Position numbers and translations under genes: made by a program
Part shown: positions 46,553-59,441 of the stretch, one piece after another
Layout of the letters: every line of letters begins with the position of its first letter
How positions within the stretch are numbered: position 1 is the stretch's first letter
Notes under the pieces: model-generated
The model's database searches: none
What the model was told of the DNA's origin: nothing
The model's input: the letters and a program-made list of their open reading frames with translations, nothing else
DNA from: an uncultured Gammaproteobacteria bacterium
GTDB taxonomy: Bacteria; Pseudomonadota; Gammaproteobacteria; Steroidobacterales; Woeseiaceae
Assembly (NCBI GenBank): GCA_937899415.1
Contig: CALBPI010000004.1
Span: forward strand, 1 to 64,000
Reading direction: 5' to 3'
DNA: 64,000 nt

Positions 46553-48262
46553 ATGATTCGACGCAGCAGACTCAGTTCCCCGACCCGACTAACCGCTCTG
46601 TTCGCGGCGCTGACCTGCGCCGTGTTGCCGCAGGCGCTGAACGCCGACGAGGTCGCACCCGCGGTACCCGAGTTCATCGACATCACTGACGCCGACCTGG
46701 CCACACCGCTAGGTGCCGATCTCGATGGCTTGCAGAACGAATTCCGCGCGAACGTGGGTGTCGACGCGGCGCGCGCCCTGGAGCTTGCGAAAGAGATCGT
46801 TGCGCTGACCGCCGAGGCATACGGCGAAGACCACGACAACCTCTCGCGCGCGCTCACAAACCTCGCGATTGTGCAGGCGGAGAACACTGAGTACGCGGCG
46901 GCCATCGAAAACTACCGCGCAGCGATCATCTCGCGCGAACGCGTCGATGGCACGCTCGTTGACGGTGAACTCATCAATCCCCTGCGCGGTCTTGCCAATG
47001 CGTTCATGGCGCTCAACGAGATCGATGCGGCGATCCCCGTCTACGAACGCGCGATCCACATCTCGCATGTGAACGAGGGGCCCAATAACCTGGACCAGGT
47101 CGAGATTATCGACGCGCTGAGCCGCGCCTATTTCTTCCAGGGCGACCTCGACACCGCCAGCGACATGCAGGACACGATCTTCCGCCTGCGCCAGCGCCGG
47201 TTCACCGAAGAGTCCGACCAGTACATCGACGCCCTCATTCAGCGTGCGACCTGGTTTTCGCGTCTGGGTGACTTCGAGGAGGCCGTGCAGGCGTACCGGC
47301 GTCTCGAACGCTCGATCTCGAAAAAGCACGGCTCCGACAGCCCGCGCCTCATCGAACCGCTCGTGGCACTCGCCACAGCAGCCATCAGCATCACGGATCT
47401 CGGCGAACCCGCGATCAATGAAGGCCGGCGCGCTATGGCACGCGCCGTGCGTATCGCCCGCAACAATGGCGAAGAAGACCCGGAGCGCCTGGCGCGCACC
47501 CTGGTCAAGCAGGGGGACTGGCTCTCGCGCCTGAACCTCATGCGCAACTCCCGGCTGCCCTACCGCGAAGCCTGGCGCACGATGGATGCCAACCCCGAGC
47601 TTCATGGGCTGCGTGACGAGCTGTTTGGCAGCCCGGTACCGATCCTTCGGGTGCCGTTCCGATCCATTTACGGCCAACGCGTCAACGAGTCGGCCGACAC
47701 GGCGCGATTCCCGCAGCGCGGCTATGCAGACGTCGCGTTCGACGTCGATCCGCTGGGACGACCGTTGAATGTACGCATCGTGGGCGGCAACCCGCCGGGC
47801 CTCATGGACGGTCACCTGCGCCGCCAGATTCGACGCTTCCGCTTCCGCCCGGCATTCCGCGGCGGGCAGCCCGTCGTGTACACGGGCCTCGCCTATCGAC
47901 ACCCGTTTCGCTACGACGAGTCCCGATTCACGGACCGAGAACGCAAGACCATCGCCACGACGACCTACGGCGAGGAGCCTGGCTCCGACGAGACGGCCGC
48001 GGCACCGATTCGACGCAACGTGAATCTGGATCCGCGCCGCGACGAAGACTTAATCGGACGCACAATTTCCGTACCCACGGAAACCACTGCGCCCACAACC
48101 ACGGAAGACACGGCCGAGAACACCACGGATGGGCCCGCAACCACAGAATCGGCGCCGACCGATGCGGATGCGGCAGCGACAGGCGATGCGGCCGGGAATT
48201 CCGAAGAGACACCGTCGGAAACCACTGATACACCTGAGGAATCCGAAGACGGTACTGAATAA
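46553..48262 (+). CDS. Secreted TPR protein with TonB-like C-terminal domain, paralogue 2
   Basis: 569 residues. Signal peptide at the N-terminus, TPR-like helices (LTNLAIVQAENTEYAAAIENYRAAI, IPVYERAIHISHVNEGPNNLDQ), and a TonB-like domain (about 375-465, RFRFRPAFRGGQPVVYTGLAYRH in two parts). Unlike its paralogues it has a tail of about 90 residues rich in Thr, Glu, Ala and Asp, probably unstructured. The 114-bp divergent region upstream includes the dyad GTAAC-ccg-GTTAC (46528-46540). It probably heads a three-gene operon with paralogues 3 and 4. Confidence 0.82.
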   Translation: MIRRSRLSSPTRLTALFAALTCAVLPQALNADEVAPAVPEFIDITDADLATPLGADLDGLQNEFRANVGVDAARALELAKEIVALTAEAYGEDHDNLSRALTNLAIVQAENTEYAAAIENYRAAIISRERVDGTLVDGELINPLRGLANAFMALNEIDAAIPVYERAIHISHVNEGPNNLDQVEIIDALSRAYFFQGDLDTASDMQDTIFRLRQRRFTEESDQYIDALIQRATWFSRLGDFEEAVQAYRRLERSISKKHGSDSPRLIEPLVALATAAISITDLGEPAINEGRRAMARAVRIARNNGEEDPERLARTLVKQGDWLSRLNLMRNSRLPYREAWRTMDANPELHGLRDELFGSPVPILRVPFRSIYGQRVNESADTARFPQRGYADVAFDVDPLGRPLNVRIVGGNPPGLMDGHLRRQIRRFRFRPAFRGGQPVVYTGLAYRHPFRYDESRFTDRERKTIATTTYGEEPGSDETAAAPIRRNVNLDPRRDEDLIGRTISVPTETTAPTTTEDTAENTTDGPATTESAPTDADAAATGDAAGNSEETPSETTDTPEESEDGTE

Positions 48263-48294
48263 GGCGGGGCCCAGTCCCCGGGGAGGCTAGCAGC

Positions 48295-49650
48295 GTGACG
48301 ATTCGATTCACGGCTGCGCGCGTGGTGCGCGCTGGCATGCTTGGTATGGCCCTTTCGGCAACCTGGCTGCTGCCAGGACCTCTGGCCGCGTCTTCAAACC
48401 AGGACCTGGCGCCGTCAGCGTTTGAGCTGACGCCGACCCAGCTTGAGTCCGCGGCCGGCGCGGCGCTGGCCAGCGAATACGCCGCATTCACCGAAAACCT
48501 GGAGAGCGATCCGGCGACGGCCGCCATGCACGCCGAAGCCGCGGCCAAGCTTGCCGCCGATCAATTTGGTAGCGCTGCACCGGAATACGCGACCGCACTT
48601 GCCAACCAGGGCCTCGCTGAGCAGGTGGCCGGACGGCTCGATCGTGCCGTGCTCGCCTACGAGGAAGCGATCCAGGTCATCCAGGCCAACGAGGGCGAGA
48701 ACAGCGTGGCCCAGGTAGCTGTCGCCAACGCGCTGGCCGAAACGCTCATGGCACGTGGTGACCGCCGCGATGCCACAAAGCTGCAGGAACGCACATTCCT
48801 GTTGCAGAAGGCCTACTACGGCGACGACTCACCGCAGCTCGTGGACGCGCTGTACACACGAGCGCGATGGGCTGAGCGCACGAGCACAGCCGAGTCGGCC
48901 GCGCGCGCCTACCAGCGCATCGTGAGCATCGTCGGTGAGCACTACGGCGAGTTTGAGACGGACCTCATCGAACCCCTGATGGCCTTCGCGTTTGTATCGC
49001 TGGACCGCGAGACCGGGAAGTTCGCGCGCACACCGCGCAGCATCCAGATGGAGGCAGATCGTGCTGCAGCCCGCGCCGTACGCATTGCACGCAGCACCGC
49101 CGACACTGATCCCGCATTGCTGGCCCGAACACTTGTACGTCAGGGCGACTGGATGCAGTTCATCGGACTGCGCCGGCGCGGCCAGCAGGCCTACCGCGAA
49201 GCCTGGGCGATGATGTCTGAGAACCCCGGCCTCACCGAGCTTCGCGCGGAGCTGTTCACCACACCGACCTCGATCTACGCAGCGCCGCTGCGGCGCGTTT
49301 ACAACGCATCTCGCGAAGGCACCTTCGACGAGCGCGACTTTCCGCGCGAGGGCTTTGTGGAAGTCCGCTACGACATCAATCCGCGCGGTCGCCCCGTCAA
49401 CATTCGGATCATTGACGGTTACCCCGCCGGCCTGCTCGACGCCCACATTGTGCGCCAGATTCGCGGCTCGCTGTACCGGCCCGAGTACCGCGACGGCAAG
49501 CCGGTTCGCCAGCGCAACCTGACGCTGCGCCACACATTCTCCTACGACGACACGCGATTTTCTGACAGCGAGCGCGCCTTCATTGAACGCGTTGCCAGCG
49601 AACGCGTAGGCAAGCGTGACGACGACGAATCGGGCTCTAACGGTGGCTGA
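48295..49650 (+). CDS. Secreted TPR protein with TonB-like C-terminal domain, paralogue 3
   Basis: 451 residues. GTG 48295 lies behind GGGGAGG at a good distance. Signal peptide (about 1-30), TPR-like helices (ALANQGLAEQVAGRLDRAVLAYEEAI) and a TonB-like C-terminus (GFVEVRYDINPRGRPVNIRI, SLYRPEYRDGKPV). It is the most compact member. Its 3' end overlaps paralogue 4 by 35 or 8 bases depending on the start used there, so the pair is likely coupled. Confidence 0.82.
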   Translation: MTIRFTAARVVRAGMLGMALSATWLLPGPLAASSNQDLAPSAFELTPTQLESAAGAALASEYAAFTENLESDPATAAMHAEAAAKLAADQFGSAAPEYATALANQGLAEQVAGRLDRAVLAYEEAIQVIQANEGENSVAQVAVANALAETLMARGDRRDATKLQERTFLLQKAYYGDDSPQLVDALYTRARWAERTSTAESAARAYQRIVSIVGEHYGEFETDLIEPLMAFAFVSLDRETGKFARTPRSIQMEADRAAARAVRIARSTADTDPALLARTLVRQGDWMQFIGLRRRGQQAYREAWAMMSENPGLTELRAELFTTPTSIYAAPLRRVYNASREGTFDERDFPREGFVEVRYDINPRGRPVNIRIIDGYPAGLLDAHIVRQIRGSLYRPEYRDGKPVRQRNLTLRHTFSYDDTRFSDSERAFIERVASERVGKRDDDESGSNGG

Positions 49651-51085
49651 CCGCGCTGGGGCGCATCATCCCCGCGCCGCCGTGCTGGCGCTGGGGCTGG
49701 CATTGTGCCTGATCGCACCCGAGGCGACCGCGCAGCAGGCTGCTGTTGCGCTGCCCGAGCCCGTTATTCTGCACGACACCGAAGTCGCCTACCGTAGCGG
49801 CGACGACGAGCTTGAAACCCGCCTTGAACGTGCTCGGGAAGTGGTGGCGCAAGCCGCAGCCGCCAAGGGACTGCGCGACAACAGCGTCGCCAGCGCGCGT
49901 CACAACCTGGCGCTGCTGCAAGCTGAGGACGGCAACTACGGCCCCGCGATCGAGAATTTCCGGGCGGCTATCGCGACACGCGAGGCGGTCGGCAGATCGC
50001 TCGTCGCGCCGGACCTCGTTAACTCGCTCGTGGGGCTGGCCAATGCGCTTGAGGCAGCGGGCGAAGAAGAAGCGGCGATCACCACCCTCGAACGGGCGAT
50101 CCACATCGCGCACGTGAACGAGGGCCCCGATACGCTGTCGCAGGTCCCCTTCATCGATGCGTTGAGCGAGCTTTACGAAGACATCGGCGATTCGCGTGAG
50201 TCGCGCCGGATGCATGATCACCGCTACCGGATCGTCCAGCGGAGCTTTGAGGCCGGCGACGACGCGCTCGTCGACGCACTCGAGTATCGCGCGCGCTGGG
50301 CACGCCGGGTCGACAACGACGAACTCGCCTCGCTTTGTTACACACAGATCACGCAGGGCCTCGCCAAGCGATTCGGCGACAAGGACCCGCGCCTCATCGA
50401 TCCGCTCATGAAGTTCGCGACCGTATCCCTGGGCCGTGAGACGGGACGGTACGCCCGCACGGAACAGGGCCTGCTATCGGAGGCGCGTCGCGCGATCGGC
50501 CGCGCCGAGCGTATCGCGCGCGAATCGGGCGACGCCGAGGTGCTCGCGCGCATGCTCGTGCGCAAAGGCGACTGGATGCAGTACGTCGGCAGCTCACGTG
50601 GTGCAAGCGATAGCTACAACGAGGCTTGGGGCTTGATGGATGGCGCCCCTGCGCTTGCGCCGCTCAAGGGCGAACTGTTCGGGCAGGCCGTCGCCATCTA
50701 CGAAGCGCCCATGTACATGATCTACGGTAATGCGGGTGAGGTCGACAACGACCCGCGCTTCTACCCCGACGAGGGCTTCGTCACAGTCAACTTCAGTGTG
50801 GACGCTTCGGGCAAGGTGTTCGACATCGATGTCGTCGACAGCGAGCCCACAGGCCTTCGGGACGTTTACGTCTACCGACGGCTGGGCGCCTACGTGTTCC
50901 GACCTCGATTCGTTGACGGCATGCCCGTGGCGCAGGACGGCTTTACGTTCCGCCACGACTTTCGTTACAACGCGTCGCGATTCTCAAGCAATGAGCGCAA
51001 GTTTCTGCAACGAAAGAAGGCCGAGCGTGACGCCAAGATTGCTGCGCAGCCGACTGCGACCAATGGCGAGGCAAGCGGCGGCTAA
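49616..51085 (+). CDS. Secreted TPR protein with TonB-like C-terminal domain, paralogue 4
   Basis: 489 residues from GTG 49616; an in-frame GTG at 49643 would shorten the overlap with paralogue 3 to eight bases. Signal peptide (AVLALGLALCLIAPEATAQ), TPR-like helices (ARHNLALLQAEDGNYGPAIENF, ITTLERAIHIAHVNEGPDTL) and TonB-like C-terminus (GFVTVNFSVDASGKVFDIDV, AYVFRPRFVDGMPV). It closes the paralogue block and its stop overlaps the stop of a convergent EamA gene. Confidence 0.82.
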   Translation: MTTTNRALTVADRAGAHHPRAAVLALGLALCLIAPEATAQQAAVALPEPVILHDTEVAYRSGDDELETRLERAREVVAQAAAAKGLRDNSVASARHNLALLQAEDGNYGPAIENFRAAIATREAVGRSLVAPDLVNSLVGLANALEAAGEEEAAITTLERAIHIAHVNEGPDTLSQVPFIDALSELYEDIGDSRESRRMHDHRYRIVQRSFEAGDDALVDALEYRARWARRVDNDELASLCYTQITQGLAKRFGDKDPRLIDPLMKFATVSLGRETGRYARTEQGLLSEARRAIGRAERIARESGDAEVLARMLVRKGDWMQYVGSSRGASDSYNEAWGLMDGAPALAPLKGELFGQAVAIYEAPMYMIYGNAGEVDNDPRFYPDEGFVTVNFSVDASGKVFDIDVVDSEPTGLRDVYVYRRLGAYVFRPRFVDGMPVAQDGFTFRHDFRYNASRFSSNERKFLQRKKAERDAKIAAQPTATNGEASGG

Positions 51086-55841: not shown

Positions 55842-58800
55842 CTAAGCCCCCGATAAGCGACTGATCTCTATGTCCCAACGCGCAGATTCGAGCGATCCCT
55901 GGGCCTCGAAAGCGCCCGTCTGACCGACCTCCCAGGCCTCGGCCAGCGTCTCCGACATGAGCAGCTCCCGGTATTCGGCCAGTGCGGCCTCAACCGCCGC
56001 ATCACCCGAAACGCCGAGCCGGATCCGGTCCTCGACCTCGAGCCCGGCCTGCTTGCGCGCCTCCTGGACCGTGCGGATGAGCTCCCGAGCCAGGCCCTCG
56101 CGGCGCAGATCATCATCAAGGGCAGTATCGAGGCCCACGAGGTAGCCGGCCTCCTCGGCCGAGGCATAGCCTGCGGCTGAGGCCGTCTCCACAAGGCAGT
56201 CCTCGGCACCGAGCGTCAGCGTGTCGCCCTCGACGTCGAGTTCGAAGGTGTCGCCTGCAGCCACGGCCGTGGCGATGTGCTCACCATCGGCCGCGTCGAG
56301 CGCTGCCCGGATTTTCGGCACCAGTTTGCCGAACTTCTTGCCCACAACGGGCAAGTTCGGCTTGATGCGGTAGTCGACGAGGCTCGCGTCGCGGGCGACG
56401 GGTTCGATCGACTTCACGTTGAGCTCGTCCTCGATCTGCTCGCGGTGCGACAGCACGGCCGCCATCGCAGCCTCGCTGGGTGCCCGCACGAGTGCACGCG
56501 CCAGCGGCTGACGCGTGCGGACGCCGCTCTGCGATCGCGCGGCACGACCGAGGCCCACCACCTTCTGTACGACATCGATCTCGTAGAGCAGGTCGTCGTC
56601 AATCAGCGCGGCATCGACCTCGGGCCACCCGGCCATGTGCACACTGTCGGGTGCCGTCGCGTGCACGCGCCGCACGAGGTTCTGGTAGAGCGATTCGGCC
56701 AGGAACGGGGTGAACGGCGCCAACATGTACGTCAGCGACGACAGGCACTCGTAGAGCGTGTGGTAGGCCGCGCGCTTGTCATCACCGTCAGCGGCTTTCC
56801 AGAAACGACGCCGGTTGCGGCGCACGTACCAGTTCGAGAGCTGGTCGACGAAGGACTCGATGGCCACACCGGCCGCCTGCGCATCGTAGCGCTCAAGCGC
56901 CTCGGTCACGTCTGCCAGCGTGCGCTGCTTCAAGGCAATGGCCCAGCGGTCGATCTCGGGTCGCGACGCAGGCGCGCTGCGGTTCGTGTAGTCGACCTCC
57001 TCGAGCCGCGCGTAGAGCACGAAAAACGCGTAGGTGTTCCAGAGCGTGTTGACGAAAGAGCTCGCAACGTCGGCAACGATGTCGACCGAGATGCGCTTCT
57101 GCACGTCGGGCGCGACGCGCGCGAGGAAGTACCAGCGCAGCGGATCGGCGCCGACAGCGTCGAACACCTCGTAGGGGTTCAATATGTTGCCCAGCGACTT
57201 CGACATCTTCTTGCCGTCAGCGTCGACGATGTGGCTCAGGCAGATCACGTTCTTGTAGGCGACGCTGTCCGACACGAGTGTGGCGATCGCGTGCAGCGTG
57301 TAGAACCAGCCACGCGTCTGGTCGATGGCCTCACAAATGTAGTCGGCCGGGAAATGCGCTTCGAAGTGTTCGGCGTTTTCGAATGGGTAGTGCCACTGCG
57401 CGTAGCTCATGGCGCCCGAGTCGAACCAGCAGTCGATGACTTCGGGAACGCGGGTCCAGGTCTTGCCGTCGAGCTCGAACGTGATGTCGTCAACTGCAGG
57501 GCGGTGCAGATCAAGCTCGGACAAATCACGCCCCGCGAGATCAGCAAGCTCACCCACAGAACCCACGCACTTGAAGTTGCCGTCGCCATCCGTCCAGACG
57601 GGCAGCGGCGTACCCCAGAAGCGCTCGCGCGAAAGCGCCCAGTCAACGTTGTTCTCGAGCCAGTTACCGAAACGCCCCTCGCGGATCGTCTCGGGCACCC
57701 AGTCGATCTCGCGGTTGAGCTCGACCATGCGGTCCTTCACCTGGGTCGTGCGGATGTACCAGGCGTTCTTGGCGTAGTAGATGATCGGGTCGCCCGTGCG
57801 CCAGCCGAACGGGTAGTTATGAAGGTAGCGCTCGGCGCGGAACAGGTCGCCACGCGCTTTGAGCAGCTTCATGAGCACGGGGTCGGCGTCCTTGAAGAAC
57901 AGCCCCGCCACAGGCTCCACAGCCTCAACGAAGTGCCCGTCAAGACCGACGCCGTGCAGGATCGGCAGGCCGTTGGCCTGGCCCAGCGCGAGATCGTCGA
58001 CACCGTAAGCCGGCGCCGTGTGCACGATGCCCGTACCGTCCTCAACGCTCACAAAGTCTGCGTGCCAGACGCGGAACGCCGGGCAGTCGGCATCCACCTC
58101 GAGGTAGTCAAACAGGCGCTGATAGGTCTTGCCGAGAAGCTCGGCGCCTTTCACGGTCTTCTCAACGCTGTGCTCGGCATCACCGAACACGCGCTCGCGC
58201 AGCGCGCTGGCCACGATCAGCGTCTCGTCACCATGGCGCACGTAGTCGTAGTCGATGTCTTCGCCCACGGCCAGCGCGAGGTTAGACGGCAGCGTCCAGG
58301 GCGTCGTCGTCCAGACGAGAAACGCCGTGTTGTCCTCGTCGATGAGTTTGAAGCGCACGAAGATCGAGGGGTCCTCGACCTCGCGGTAACCCTGAGCCAG
58401 CTCGTGCGACGACAGCGTCGCCCCGATGCGCGGGTCGTAAGGCACGACCTTGTAACCGCGGTAGATCAGACCCTGGTCCCAGATCTTTTGCAGCAGCGAC
58501 CACACCGACTCGATGTAGGCGTTGTCGAGCGTGTAGTAGGCCTCATCGAGATTGACCCAGAATCCCATGCGCTCGGTCATCTGCTCCCAGTCGCCGATGT
58601 AGGTCATCACCGACTCGCGACAACGGCGCGTGAACGCCTCGATCCCGACCTTGGACTCGATCTCCGACTTGTCGAAGATGCCGAGCTGCTTTTCGATCTC
58701 GTGCTCGACGGGCAACCCGTGTGTATCCCAGCCCGCCTTCCGCGGCACGTGGTAGCCCTGCATGGTCTTGAAGCGCGGGAACACGTCCTTGAAGGTGCGG

Positions 58801-58985
58801 GCCAGCACGTGGTGGATGCCCGGCTTGCCATTGGCCGTGGGCGGGCCCTCGTTGAAGCTGTAGCGCGGCTTGCCCTCGGTCTGTGCGAGGCTCTTGGCGA
58901 ACGTGTCGTTGTCACGCCAGAAGTCGAGCACGTCCTGCTCAAGCCTGGGGCCGTCGTAGCGGCCTTTGATCGGGTCGAATGTCAT
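55842..58985 (-). CDS. ileS: Isoleucyl-tRNA synthetase, type 2 (eukaryotic-like), with swapped HIGH motif
   Basis: Charges tRNA-Ile with isoleucine. About 1047 residues; ATG 58985 (MTFDPIKGRYDGP) follows GCGAGGACGAG. The length and the RKAGWDTHGLPVEHEIEKQLGI segment place it in type 2 (IleRS2), the form less sensitive to mupirocin. The class I HIGH motif is replaced by GIHH (residues 56-59, in KPGIHHVLARTFKD). KMSKS is intact (KKMSKSLGN, about residue 593). An editing domain and an anticodon-binding C-terminal part are present. It is preceded by a T-box leader. Only one ileS is in the window; whether a type 1 copy exists elsewhere is unknown. Confidence 0.96.
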   Translation of the reverse strand: MTFDPIKGRYDGPRLEQDVLDFWRDNDTFAKSLAQTEGKPRYSFNEGPPTANGKPGIHHVLARTFKDVFPRFKTMQGYHVPRKAGWDTHGLPVEHEIEKQLGIFDKSEIESKVGIEAFTRRCRESVMTYIGDWEQMTERMGFWVNLDEAYYTLDNAYIESVWSLLQKIWDQGLIYRGYKVVPYDPRIGATLSSHELAQGYREVEDPSIFVRFKLIDEDNTAFLVWTTTPWTLPSNLALAVGEDIDYDYVRHGDETLIVASALRERVFGDAEHSVEKTVKGAELLGKTYQRLFDYLEVDADCPAFRVWHADFVSVEDGTGIVHTAPAYGVDDLALGQANGLPILHGVGLDGHFVEAVEPVAGLFFKDADPVLMKLLKARGDLFRAERYLHNYPFGWRTGDPIIYYAKNAWYIRTTQVKDRMVELNREIDWVPETIREGRFGNWLENNVDWALSRERFWGTPLPVWTDGDGNFKCVGSVGELADLAGRDLSELDLHRPAVDDITFELDGKTWTRVPEVIDCWFDSGAMSYAQWHYPFENAEHFEAHFPADYICEAIDQTRGWFYTLHAIATLVSDSVAYKNVICLSHIVDADGKKMSKSLGNILNPYEVFDAVGADPLRWYFLARVAPDVQKRISVDIVADVASSFVNTLWNTYAFFVLYARLEEVDYTNRSAPASRPEIDRWAIALKQRTLADVTEALERYDAQAAGVAIESFVDQLSNWYVRRNRRRFWKAADGDDKRAAYHTLYECLSSLTYMLAPFTPFLAESLYQNLVRRVHATAPDSVHMAGWPEVDAALIDDDLLYEIDVVQKVVGLGRAARSQSGVRTRQPLARALVRAPSEAAMAAVLSHREQIEDELNVKSIEPVARDASLVDYRIKPNLPVVGKKFGKLVPKIRAALDAADGEHIATAVAAGDTFELDVEGDTLTLGAEDCLVETASAAGYASAEEAGYLVGLDTALDDDLRREGLARELIRTVQEARKQAGLEVEDRIRLGVSGDAAVEAALAEYRELLMSETLAEAWEVGQTGAFEAQGSLESARWDIEISRLSGA

Positions 58986-59007
58986 GGTCTCGTCCTCGCC
59001 CGGGCAC

Positions 59008-59043
59008 AAAAAACCCCGGGCGCCTTAACTAAAGCGTCCGGGG
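59008..59043 (-). terminator. T-box terminator hairpin before ileS
   Basis: CCCCGG-a-CGC pairs with GCG-c-CCGGGG around a TTTAGTTAAG loop, followed by six T. Its 5' arm also belongs to the antiterminator, so the two structures exclude each other. Confidence 0.88.
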
Positions 59044-59272
59044 CGGAATTCCGCGGTACCACCCGGTTTCGCGGCGCACTCGCGCGCACCGCCTCTGTGG
59101 GTACGAGACCCGGTCCGTGTCGGGAACCAACCGTCGCCATCTACTGCCCGCTATCGGGTTTCGGGGCGCCGCTCGAGGGAGATGTTCAGGTCCGGCGCAG
59201 GCGCGGGACTCTCACCGTCTCCCGCTCGCTTAAGCCTGCGTGATCGGCCCTACTGGCCCTGTCATCGCCTTC
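59008..59272 (-). ncRNA. T-box riboswitch (isoleucine) upstream of ileS
   Basis: Leader RNA that reads the charging state of tRNA-Ile and controls transcription of ileS. On the minus strand, in order: AGUA S-turn (5' side of the specifier loop), a stem GCAGGC/GCCTGC with an inner stem GCGGGA/TCCCGC and GGTGAGAG loop (59206-59216 region), then GAAC followed by the specifier AUC at 59183-59181 (an Ile codon). A stem III GCGGTGCGC/GTGCGCCGC follows. The T-box proper GGGTGGTACCGCGG is at 59064-59051, with the UGGUACC bulge that would pair with the tRNA acceptor end. The antiterminator pairs CCGGG with CCCGG; the competing terminator pairs CCCCGG (59043-59038) with CCGGGG (59019-59014) and ends in six T (59013-59008). 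A -10-like TAAGAT is at 59284-59279. Confidence 0.92.
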
Positions 59273-59441
59273 GCCGCGATCTTAGCGCGCTCTCACAACC
59301 AAAGCGAGACCGTGAGGCAACCAAACCACGATGCCGGCCACCGGTCGGCGCCCCCTCAGTTGTAGGTGTGTCGGGCGACTGGCACACCCCCACCGCAAAG
59401 GCCGACTGGCACCACAACACCCCACCCGCGATACTGCGGGA

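What the first reader, a model, noticed from the sequence alone, without database searches (positions are those of the whole stretch)
59008..59284. T-box riboswitch controlling ileS in an apparent gammaproteobacterium
The leader has the expected T-box elements in order: AGUA and GAAC specifier-loop motifs, AUC specifier for Ile, stem III, the GGGTGGTACCGCGG box, and mutually exclusive antiterminator and terminator with six U. The specifier agrees with the gene it controls. T-boxes are known mainly from Firmicutes, Actinobacteria, Chloroflexi, Deinococcus-Thermus and some Deltaproteobacteria; I know of no well-described gammaproteobacterial case. It may have travelled with the gene.
Basis: partly seen in the sequence, partly recalled or inferred. 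Interest (0 to 1): 0.9.

Follow-up and report, generated by a model that had tools for sequence, protein, structure and literature searches.

The report
T-box riboswitch in gammaproteobacterial ileS
A tRNA-sensing RNA switch thought to belong to Gram-positive and a few other bacteria controls the only isoleucyl-tRNA synthetase gene in a whole family of gammaproteobacteria (Woeseiaceae), where switch and gene together replaced the original synthetase gene.

Summary
Window 59036-59274 (-) matches the Rfam T-box model end to end (68.3 bits, E 8.8e-15). It falls below Rfam's gathering score of 93, so default annotation misses it. The anatomy is canonical: AUC specifier, AGUA/GAA specifier loop, distal stem I, UGGUACC bulge in an antiterminator, and an overlapping terminator with six U. 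The gene behind it is the genome's only ileS, a type 2 IleRS. The genome belongs to Woeseiaceae (Gammaproteobacteria). The element is present once per genome in 89 of 107 family members, 43 of 45 good-quality ones. It is absent from 23 genomes of other families of the order and from 367 sampled class genomes outside the family. Covariation is very strong. Order relatives carry ileS1 directly before lspA; in eight of eight Woeseiaceae tested ribF sits there and ileS1 is gone. A T-box/ileS2 unit therefore displaced the native ileS. T-boxes and ileS2 are known; the gammaproteobacterial, family-wide case and the displacement scar appear new in the literature I could search. Donor and in vivo response remain untested.

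The parts
59036..59274 (-). T-box leader RNA (Rfam RF00230, full length)
   Evidence: cmscan 68.3 bits, E 8.8e-15, model 1-219; only T-box of the genome
59171..59262 (-). Stem I, with specifier loop and distal tRNA-elbow-binding module (approximate ends)
   Evidence: Rfam alignment; helices 2-5 of the family alignment pair in 87-100% of cells with compensatory changes
59251..59254 (-). AGUA motif of the specifier loop
   Evidence: sequence, Rfam alignment
59181..59183 (-). Specifier codon AUC (Ile, read by tRNA-Ile GAU)
   Evidence: Rfam alignment; AUC invariant in 34 of 34 family T-boxes
59071..59093 (-). Stem III
   Evidence: Rfam alignment; helix 7
59038..59066 (-). Antiterminator with the T-box bulge UGGUACC (59061-59055), which would pair with the tRNA ACCA end
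   Evidence: folds to the canonical hairpin, -12.7 kcal/mol; CCGGGUGGUACCGCG invariant in the 34 aligned copies
59014..59043 (-). Intrinsic terminator stem, overlapping the antiterminator at 59043-59038
   Evidence: -19.8 kcal/mol; helix 8, 99.7% of cells paired
59008..59013 (-). U6 tract of the terminator
   Evidence: sequence
58993..58997 (-). Shine-Dalgarno-like GAGGA, 7 nt before the ATG
   Evidence: sequence
55842..58985 (-). ileS, type 2 isoleucyl-tRNA synthetase, 1047 aa, with DUF5915 C-terminal domain; only ileS of the genome
   Evidence: TIGR00392 937.8 bits, Pfam, PDB matches, single copy
59275..59312 (-). Probable promoter region (GCTAAGAT -10-like); weak in the window
   Evidence: 28 of 33 relatives have a TTGnnn-N17-TAnTTT-like sequence at this place; the window copy is a weaker match, inference

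Best explanation
This is a transcriptional (class I) T-box riboswitch that controls the cell's only isoleucyl-tRNA synthetase gene. Uncharged tRNA-Ile(GAU) pairs its anticodon with the AUC specifier, docks its elbow on distal stem I, and pairs its free ACCA end with the UGGU of the T-box bulge. This holds the antiterminator, and RNA polymerase reads through into ileS. Charged tRNA cannot pair its end, so the stronger terminator forms and transcription stops at the U6 tract. The T-box plus a type 2 ileS entered the ancestor of Woeseiaceae as one unit by horizontal transfer and displaced the native ileS1, which was lost from between ribF and lspA. Shown here: the anatomy, covariation, family-wide conservation, linkage to ileS2 and loss of ileS1 from its operon. 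Inferred: tRNA binding, readthrough, and joint transfer of T-box and gene.
For: Full-length Rfam match, single in the genome. Mutually exclusive antiterminator and terminator in the window and in 33 relatives. 32 of 42 pairs have compensatory changes; covariation score 0.455 against 0.201 shuffled and at most 0.128 slid. AUC specifier invariant in 34 of 34. 89 of 107 family genomes, 43 of 45 good-quality ones, including a one-contig 4.06 Mb genome. Directly upstream of ileS2 in all 33 relatives fetched. 0 of 23 genomes in other families of the order; 0 of 367 sampled class genomes outside the family. Order relatives have IleS at 30-42% identity against 60-74% inside the family. ileS1-lspA in 6 of 6 order relatives against ribF-lspA in 8 of 8 Woeseiaceae. 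Gamma IleS2 form one branch of 39 rows, support 100.
Against: The window copy scores below Rfam's gathering score. The base after the specifier is U, where relatives have A or G. A tRNA-Ile(GAU) gene was found only in a tRNA array; the rRNA-operon copy may be unassembled or masked. No expression data. The donor is not identified, so joint transfer of T-box and gene is inferred from their constant linkage.
Confidence: 0.93

Rival explanations
1. The leader is a T-box by descent but no longer responds to tRNA in this genome; ileS is expressed constitutively through a leaky terminator.
For: The window copy is among the lower-scoring in the family (68.3 bits; family range about 38 to 113), has U after the specifier and a weaker promoter. 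A relative, G027, carries a clearly decayed T-box remnant before ileS2, so loss does happen.
Against: All functional motifs are intact, and the window sequence keeps pairing through its own substitutions in stem I and stem III. Antiterminator and terminator are both strong.
Confidence: 0.05
2. It is a different regulator of ileS, such as a leader-peptide attenuator or a constitutive terminator in front of the gene.
For: There is a strong intrinsic terminator before the gene, and classical attenuation is used in gammaproteobacteria for some synthetases (pheST, noted in PMC1262725).
Against: Full-length match to a 219-position covariance model, and the covariation follows the T-box helices.
Confidence: 0.01
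3. The contig is a Bacillota, Chloroflexota or Actinomycetota contaminant in a gammaproteobacterial bin.
For: T-boxes and ileS2 are routine in those phyla (PMC3766115, PMC2494555).
Against: The same unit occurs in 89 of 107 genomes of the family, including a one-contig genome. IleS is 60-74% identical within the family and at most about 51% to non-gamma loci. It is the only ileS of a 98%-complete genome with 0.03% contamination.
Confidence: 0.005

Closest known systems
Class I transcriptional T-box riboswitches of Bacillota, for example ileS leaders (Rfam RF00230)
   Same: Stem I with AGUA/GAA specifier loop and distal elbow-binding module, stem III, antiterminator with UGGN bulge, overlapping terminator with U-run, specifier matching the downstream synthetase gene (PMC7583486)
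   Different: Host is a gammaproteobacterium; only one T-box per genome rather than 5 to 27 as in the Bacillota genomes compared here; in about half of the aligned family AGUA has become AACA or AAUA
Translational ileS T-boxes of Actinomycetota (PMC1262725)
   Same: Ile specifier, in front of an ileS; a Streptomyces IleS2 is on a neighbouring branch of the tree
   Different: Those regulate by hiding the Shine-Dalgarno sequence (PMC1262725); this one has a terminator with U6 and a full-length stem I
Proteobacterial T-boxes reported before: leuA leader of Geobacter and Pelobacter (PMC2494555)
   Same: T-box in a Gram-negative outside the usual phyla
   Different: Those are deltaproteobacterial and before a leucine biosynthesis gene; here Ile and a synthetase in Gammaproteobacteria
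Type 2 isoleucyl-tRNA synthetases, known for wide horizontal transfer (PMC4861432)
   Same: Sequence class: 891 bits to Thermus 1ILE against 339 bits to the type 1 enzyme 1FFY; DUF5915 end and no type 1 zinc finger
   Different: Here it is the sole IleRS of a gammaproteobacterial family and carries a T-box with it

Membership tests
T-box riboswitch (RF00230) | Significant covariance-model match over the full model | tested here: met
   68.3 bits, E 8.8e-15, 1-219 of 219; below the gathering score of 93, which 16 relatives exceed
T-box riboswitch (RF00230) | Specifier codon in the stem I internal loop that matches the regulated gene | tested here: met
   AUC at 59183-59181, ileS downstream; AUC in 34 of 34 aligned copies
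T-box riboswitch (RF00230) | UGGN T-box bulge able to pair with the tRNA NCCA end | tested here: met
   UGGUACC bulge in the folded antiterminator; the tRNA-Ile(GAT) gene found ends in ACCA
T-box riboswitch (RF00230) | Mutually exclusive antiterminator and terminator (class I) | tested here: met
   Overlap 59043-59038, -12.7 and -19.8 kcal/mol, U6; same layout in relatives
T-box riboswitch (RF00230) | Conserved secondary structure under selection | tested here: met
   32 of 42 pairs with compensatory changes, 0 of 500 shuffles as high
T-box riboswitch (RF00230) | tRNA-dependent readthrough, blocked by charged tRNA | not testable with these tools
   needs in vitro transcription or reporter assay
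Type 2 isoleucyl-tRNA synthetase | Closer to type 2 than to type 1 enzymes, without the type 1 C-terminal zinc finger | tested here: met
   891 bits to 1ILE, 339 bits to 1FFY; no zf-FPG_IleRS; DUF5915 present
Type 2 isoleucyl-tRNA synthetase | Low sensitivity to mupirocin | not tested
   a property of many, with a wide range, among type 2 enzymes (PMC4861432)
Horizontally acquired replacement of ileS1 | Foreign-type gene present, native gene lost from its operon | tested here: met
   Only one ileS; ribF-lspA in 8 of 8 Woeseiaceae, ileS1-lspA in 6 of 6 order relatives

The most novel reading that the evidence does not exclude
A T-box/ileS2 unit spread among several gammaproteobacterial lineages, not only Woeseiaceae, and its expression platform diversified after arrival: it remained a terminator in Woeseiaceae, came to stand before a gst-ileS pair in an Arenicellales genome (L077), and may have become a translational (Shine-Dalgarno-hiding) switch in another lineage (L069, L089). 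That would be a natural experiment in how a tRNA-sensing riboswitch adapts to a new host.
Probability: 0.45. Interest if true: 0.7.

Novelty: new member of a known kind. Interest (0 to 1): 0.58.

Why it matters
Surveys in the searchable literature confine T-boxes to Bacillota, Actinomycetota, Chloroflexota, Deinococcus-Thermus and a few deltaproteobacteria (PMC2494555, PMC3766115). A family-wide, conserved case in Gammaproteobacteria suggests that the switch can move as regulatory cargo with a synthetase gene, replace an essential native gene, and be kept by selection over a whole family's history. It also shows that Rfam's cut-off hides real T-boxes: 73 of the 89 found in this family score below it. 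A family with cultured members would allow a direct test of what a T-box needs from its host.

Tried and rejected
Raw folding energy of the leader: uninformative (z -0.60). Vitreschak 2008 and Gutierrez-Preciado 2009 are not held and TBDB entries cannot be queried, so a gammaproteobacterial entry there cannot be excluded. Search for the rRNA-operon tRNA-Ile(GAU): a pattern and the E. coli gene as BLAST query found only tRNA-Met-type genes in the loci checked and, in the window's genome, one tRNA-Ile(GAT) in a tRNA array; probably masked or unassembled rRNA operons. Donor: the nearest non-gamma IleS2 (L080, no T-box; then L086 and a Streptomyces) are too few and too distant to name one. A spurious RNAalifold helix joining columns 131-138 to 289-296, with no two-sided changes, was left out of the pair count. 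Contamination was considered and rejected.

Full report
Observation. The leader before ileS lies on the minus strand. At Rfam's curated cut-offs nothing is reported in the window. Scanning 58900-59400 with permissive settings gives RF00230 at 59274-59036, all 219 model positions, 68.3 bits, E 8.8e-15, while the next families are chance-level. It is the only T-box of the 3.94 Mb assembly. Read from the sequence: AGUA 59254-59251, GAA 59187-59185, AUC 59183-59181, antiterminator 59066-59038 with the UGGUACC bulge, terminator stem 59043-59014, U6 59013-59008, GAGGA 58997-58993 and ATG 58985. The antiterminator folds alone into the classic hairpin with a seven-base bulge (-12.7 kcal/mol). The terminator is stronger (-19.8), and they share six bases.

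Gene. The ORF 58985-55842 is IleRS (TIGR00392, 937.8 bits against a cut-off of 621.4) and the only ileS of the genome (the weaker matches there fall below the cut-off and look like other class I synthetases). It is type 2: 891 bits to Thermus 1ILE and 339 to S. aureus type 1 IleRS 1FFY, with a DUF5915 end and without the type 1 zinc finger. The assignment of these structures to types follows PMC4861432.

Host. The window genome shares its family code with G004, G014 and G033. Their contigs coincide in length and coordinates with CAJJBK010000015.1, JAPKEL010000001.1 and JAQWSV010000288.1, all titled Woeseiaceae. Woeseiaceae is in Gammaproteobacteria. No marker-gene tree of my own was built; the placement rests on the group codes and these titles.

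Distribution. In the family, 89 of 107 genomes carry a match, always one, and 43 of 45 of those at least 90% complete and at most 5% contaminated; 73 of the 89 score below Rfam's cut-off. Of 60 relatives, 34 match, all in the family; 0 of 23 in 15 other families of the order match. A sample of 369 genomes across the class gave two matches, the window's genome and one family member. That search used stricter filters, so rare cases elsewhere may be missed. Several misses inside the family are explained: G022 has no ileS in its assembly, G031 lacks the 5' end of ileS, and G027 has a decayed remnant.

Structure. Thirty-four T-boxes align with AUC invariant. For 42 pairs, 94.6% of cells pair, 32 pairs show changes on both sides, and the covariation score is 0.455 (0.201 shuffled, 0 of 500 as high; 0.05-0.13 with partners slid). 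Relatives have an antiterminator and an overlapping terminator, and 28 of 33 have a TTGnnn-N17-TAnTTT promoter-like sequence just upstream. Together this supports a dedicated transcript that starts just before stem I (inference).

Origin. Inside the family IleS is 60-74% identical to the window's. In order relatives the best match is 30-42%. In six order relatives lspA is preceded by the C-terminal part of a type 1 IleRS. In eight Woeseiaceae, the window's genome included, lspA is preceded directly by ribF (all eight ribF and all six ileS1 confirmed with Pfam or NCBIfam). So ileS1 was removed from ribF-ileS-lspA, and the T-box/ileS2 unit elsewhere took over. All gamma IleS2, including genomes titled Arenicellales, Acidiferrobacter and Pseudomonadales, fall on one branch with support 100 that excludes every non-gamma row, and the window's family lies on a 28-row branch (99). 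Some of these other gammas also carry T-boxes. The donor is not resolved: the nearest non-gamma rows are an unnamed bacterium without T-box and a pair with Streptomyces whose T-boxes lack a terminator with a U-run.

Mechanism. As in class I T-boxes (PMC7583486), uncharged tRNA-Ile would hold the antiterminator and charged tRNA would let the terminator form. No experiment is available here, and the tRNA partner could be read only from a tRNA array (GAT anticodon, ACCA end).

Known or new. T-boxes, ileS T-boxes and horizontally mobile ileS2 are all known (PMC2494555, PMC1262725, PMC4861432). Published surveys list no gammaproteobacterial case (PMC2494555, PMC3766115), and text searches for T-box with Gammaproteobacteria or Woeseia found none. 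The library is incomplete and TBDB (PMC7778990) could not be queried. I therefore rate it a new member of a known kind, well supported, with the displacement scar and the family-wide conservation as the most informative parts.

Noticed in passing
L246 (G027:C4), minus strand about 690-440: The one complete family ileS2 examined without a T-box match has a decayed one: promoter and start of stem I, then a long perfect inverted repeat in place of the sensor, then a GTGTGGTACCGTGA remnant and terminator. It could also be an assembly artefact.
   Followed up: partly
L077, 4260-5001: Arenicellales genome: T-box with terminator (115.8 bits), then a glutathione-S-transferase-like ORF, then ileS2; the T-box would drive a gst-ileS pair.
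   Followed up: partly
L069 4905-5001 and L089 4018-4112: T-box before ileS2 without a U-run; CCTCTCCCCGG could pair with CCGGTGAGGGG near the start codon, suggesting a translational platform, though the spacing to ATG is about 20 nt.
   Followed up: partly
L136, L073: Gammaproteobacterial genomes next to the Arenicellales one in the IleS tree with ileS2 but no T-box found: apparent loss.
   Followed up: no
alignment A2 columns 42-45 (window 59254-59251): In about half of the family the AGUA of the specifier loop is AACA or AAUA, a departure from the usual loop motif.
   Followed up: no
G000:C27 43095-46669 and G000:C47 1-853: Two tRNA gene arrays in the window's genome, including weak-scoring copies; the only tRNA-Ile(GAT) found lies in one.
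   Followed up: no
window 46553-51085: Three adjacent similar-looking ORFs of 569, 451 and 489 aa; the first has TPR repeats. Looks like a tandem duplication.
   Followed up: no
G043, G056 (family f8 of the same order): A more distant ileS2-like gene (38-42% identity) without T-box.
   Followed up: no
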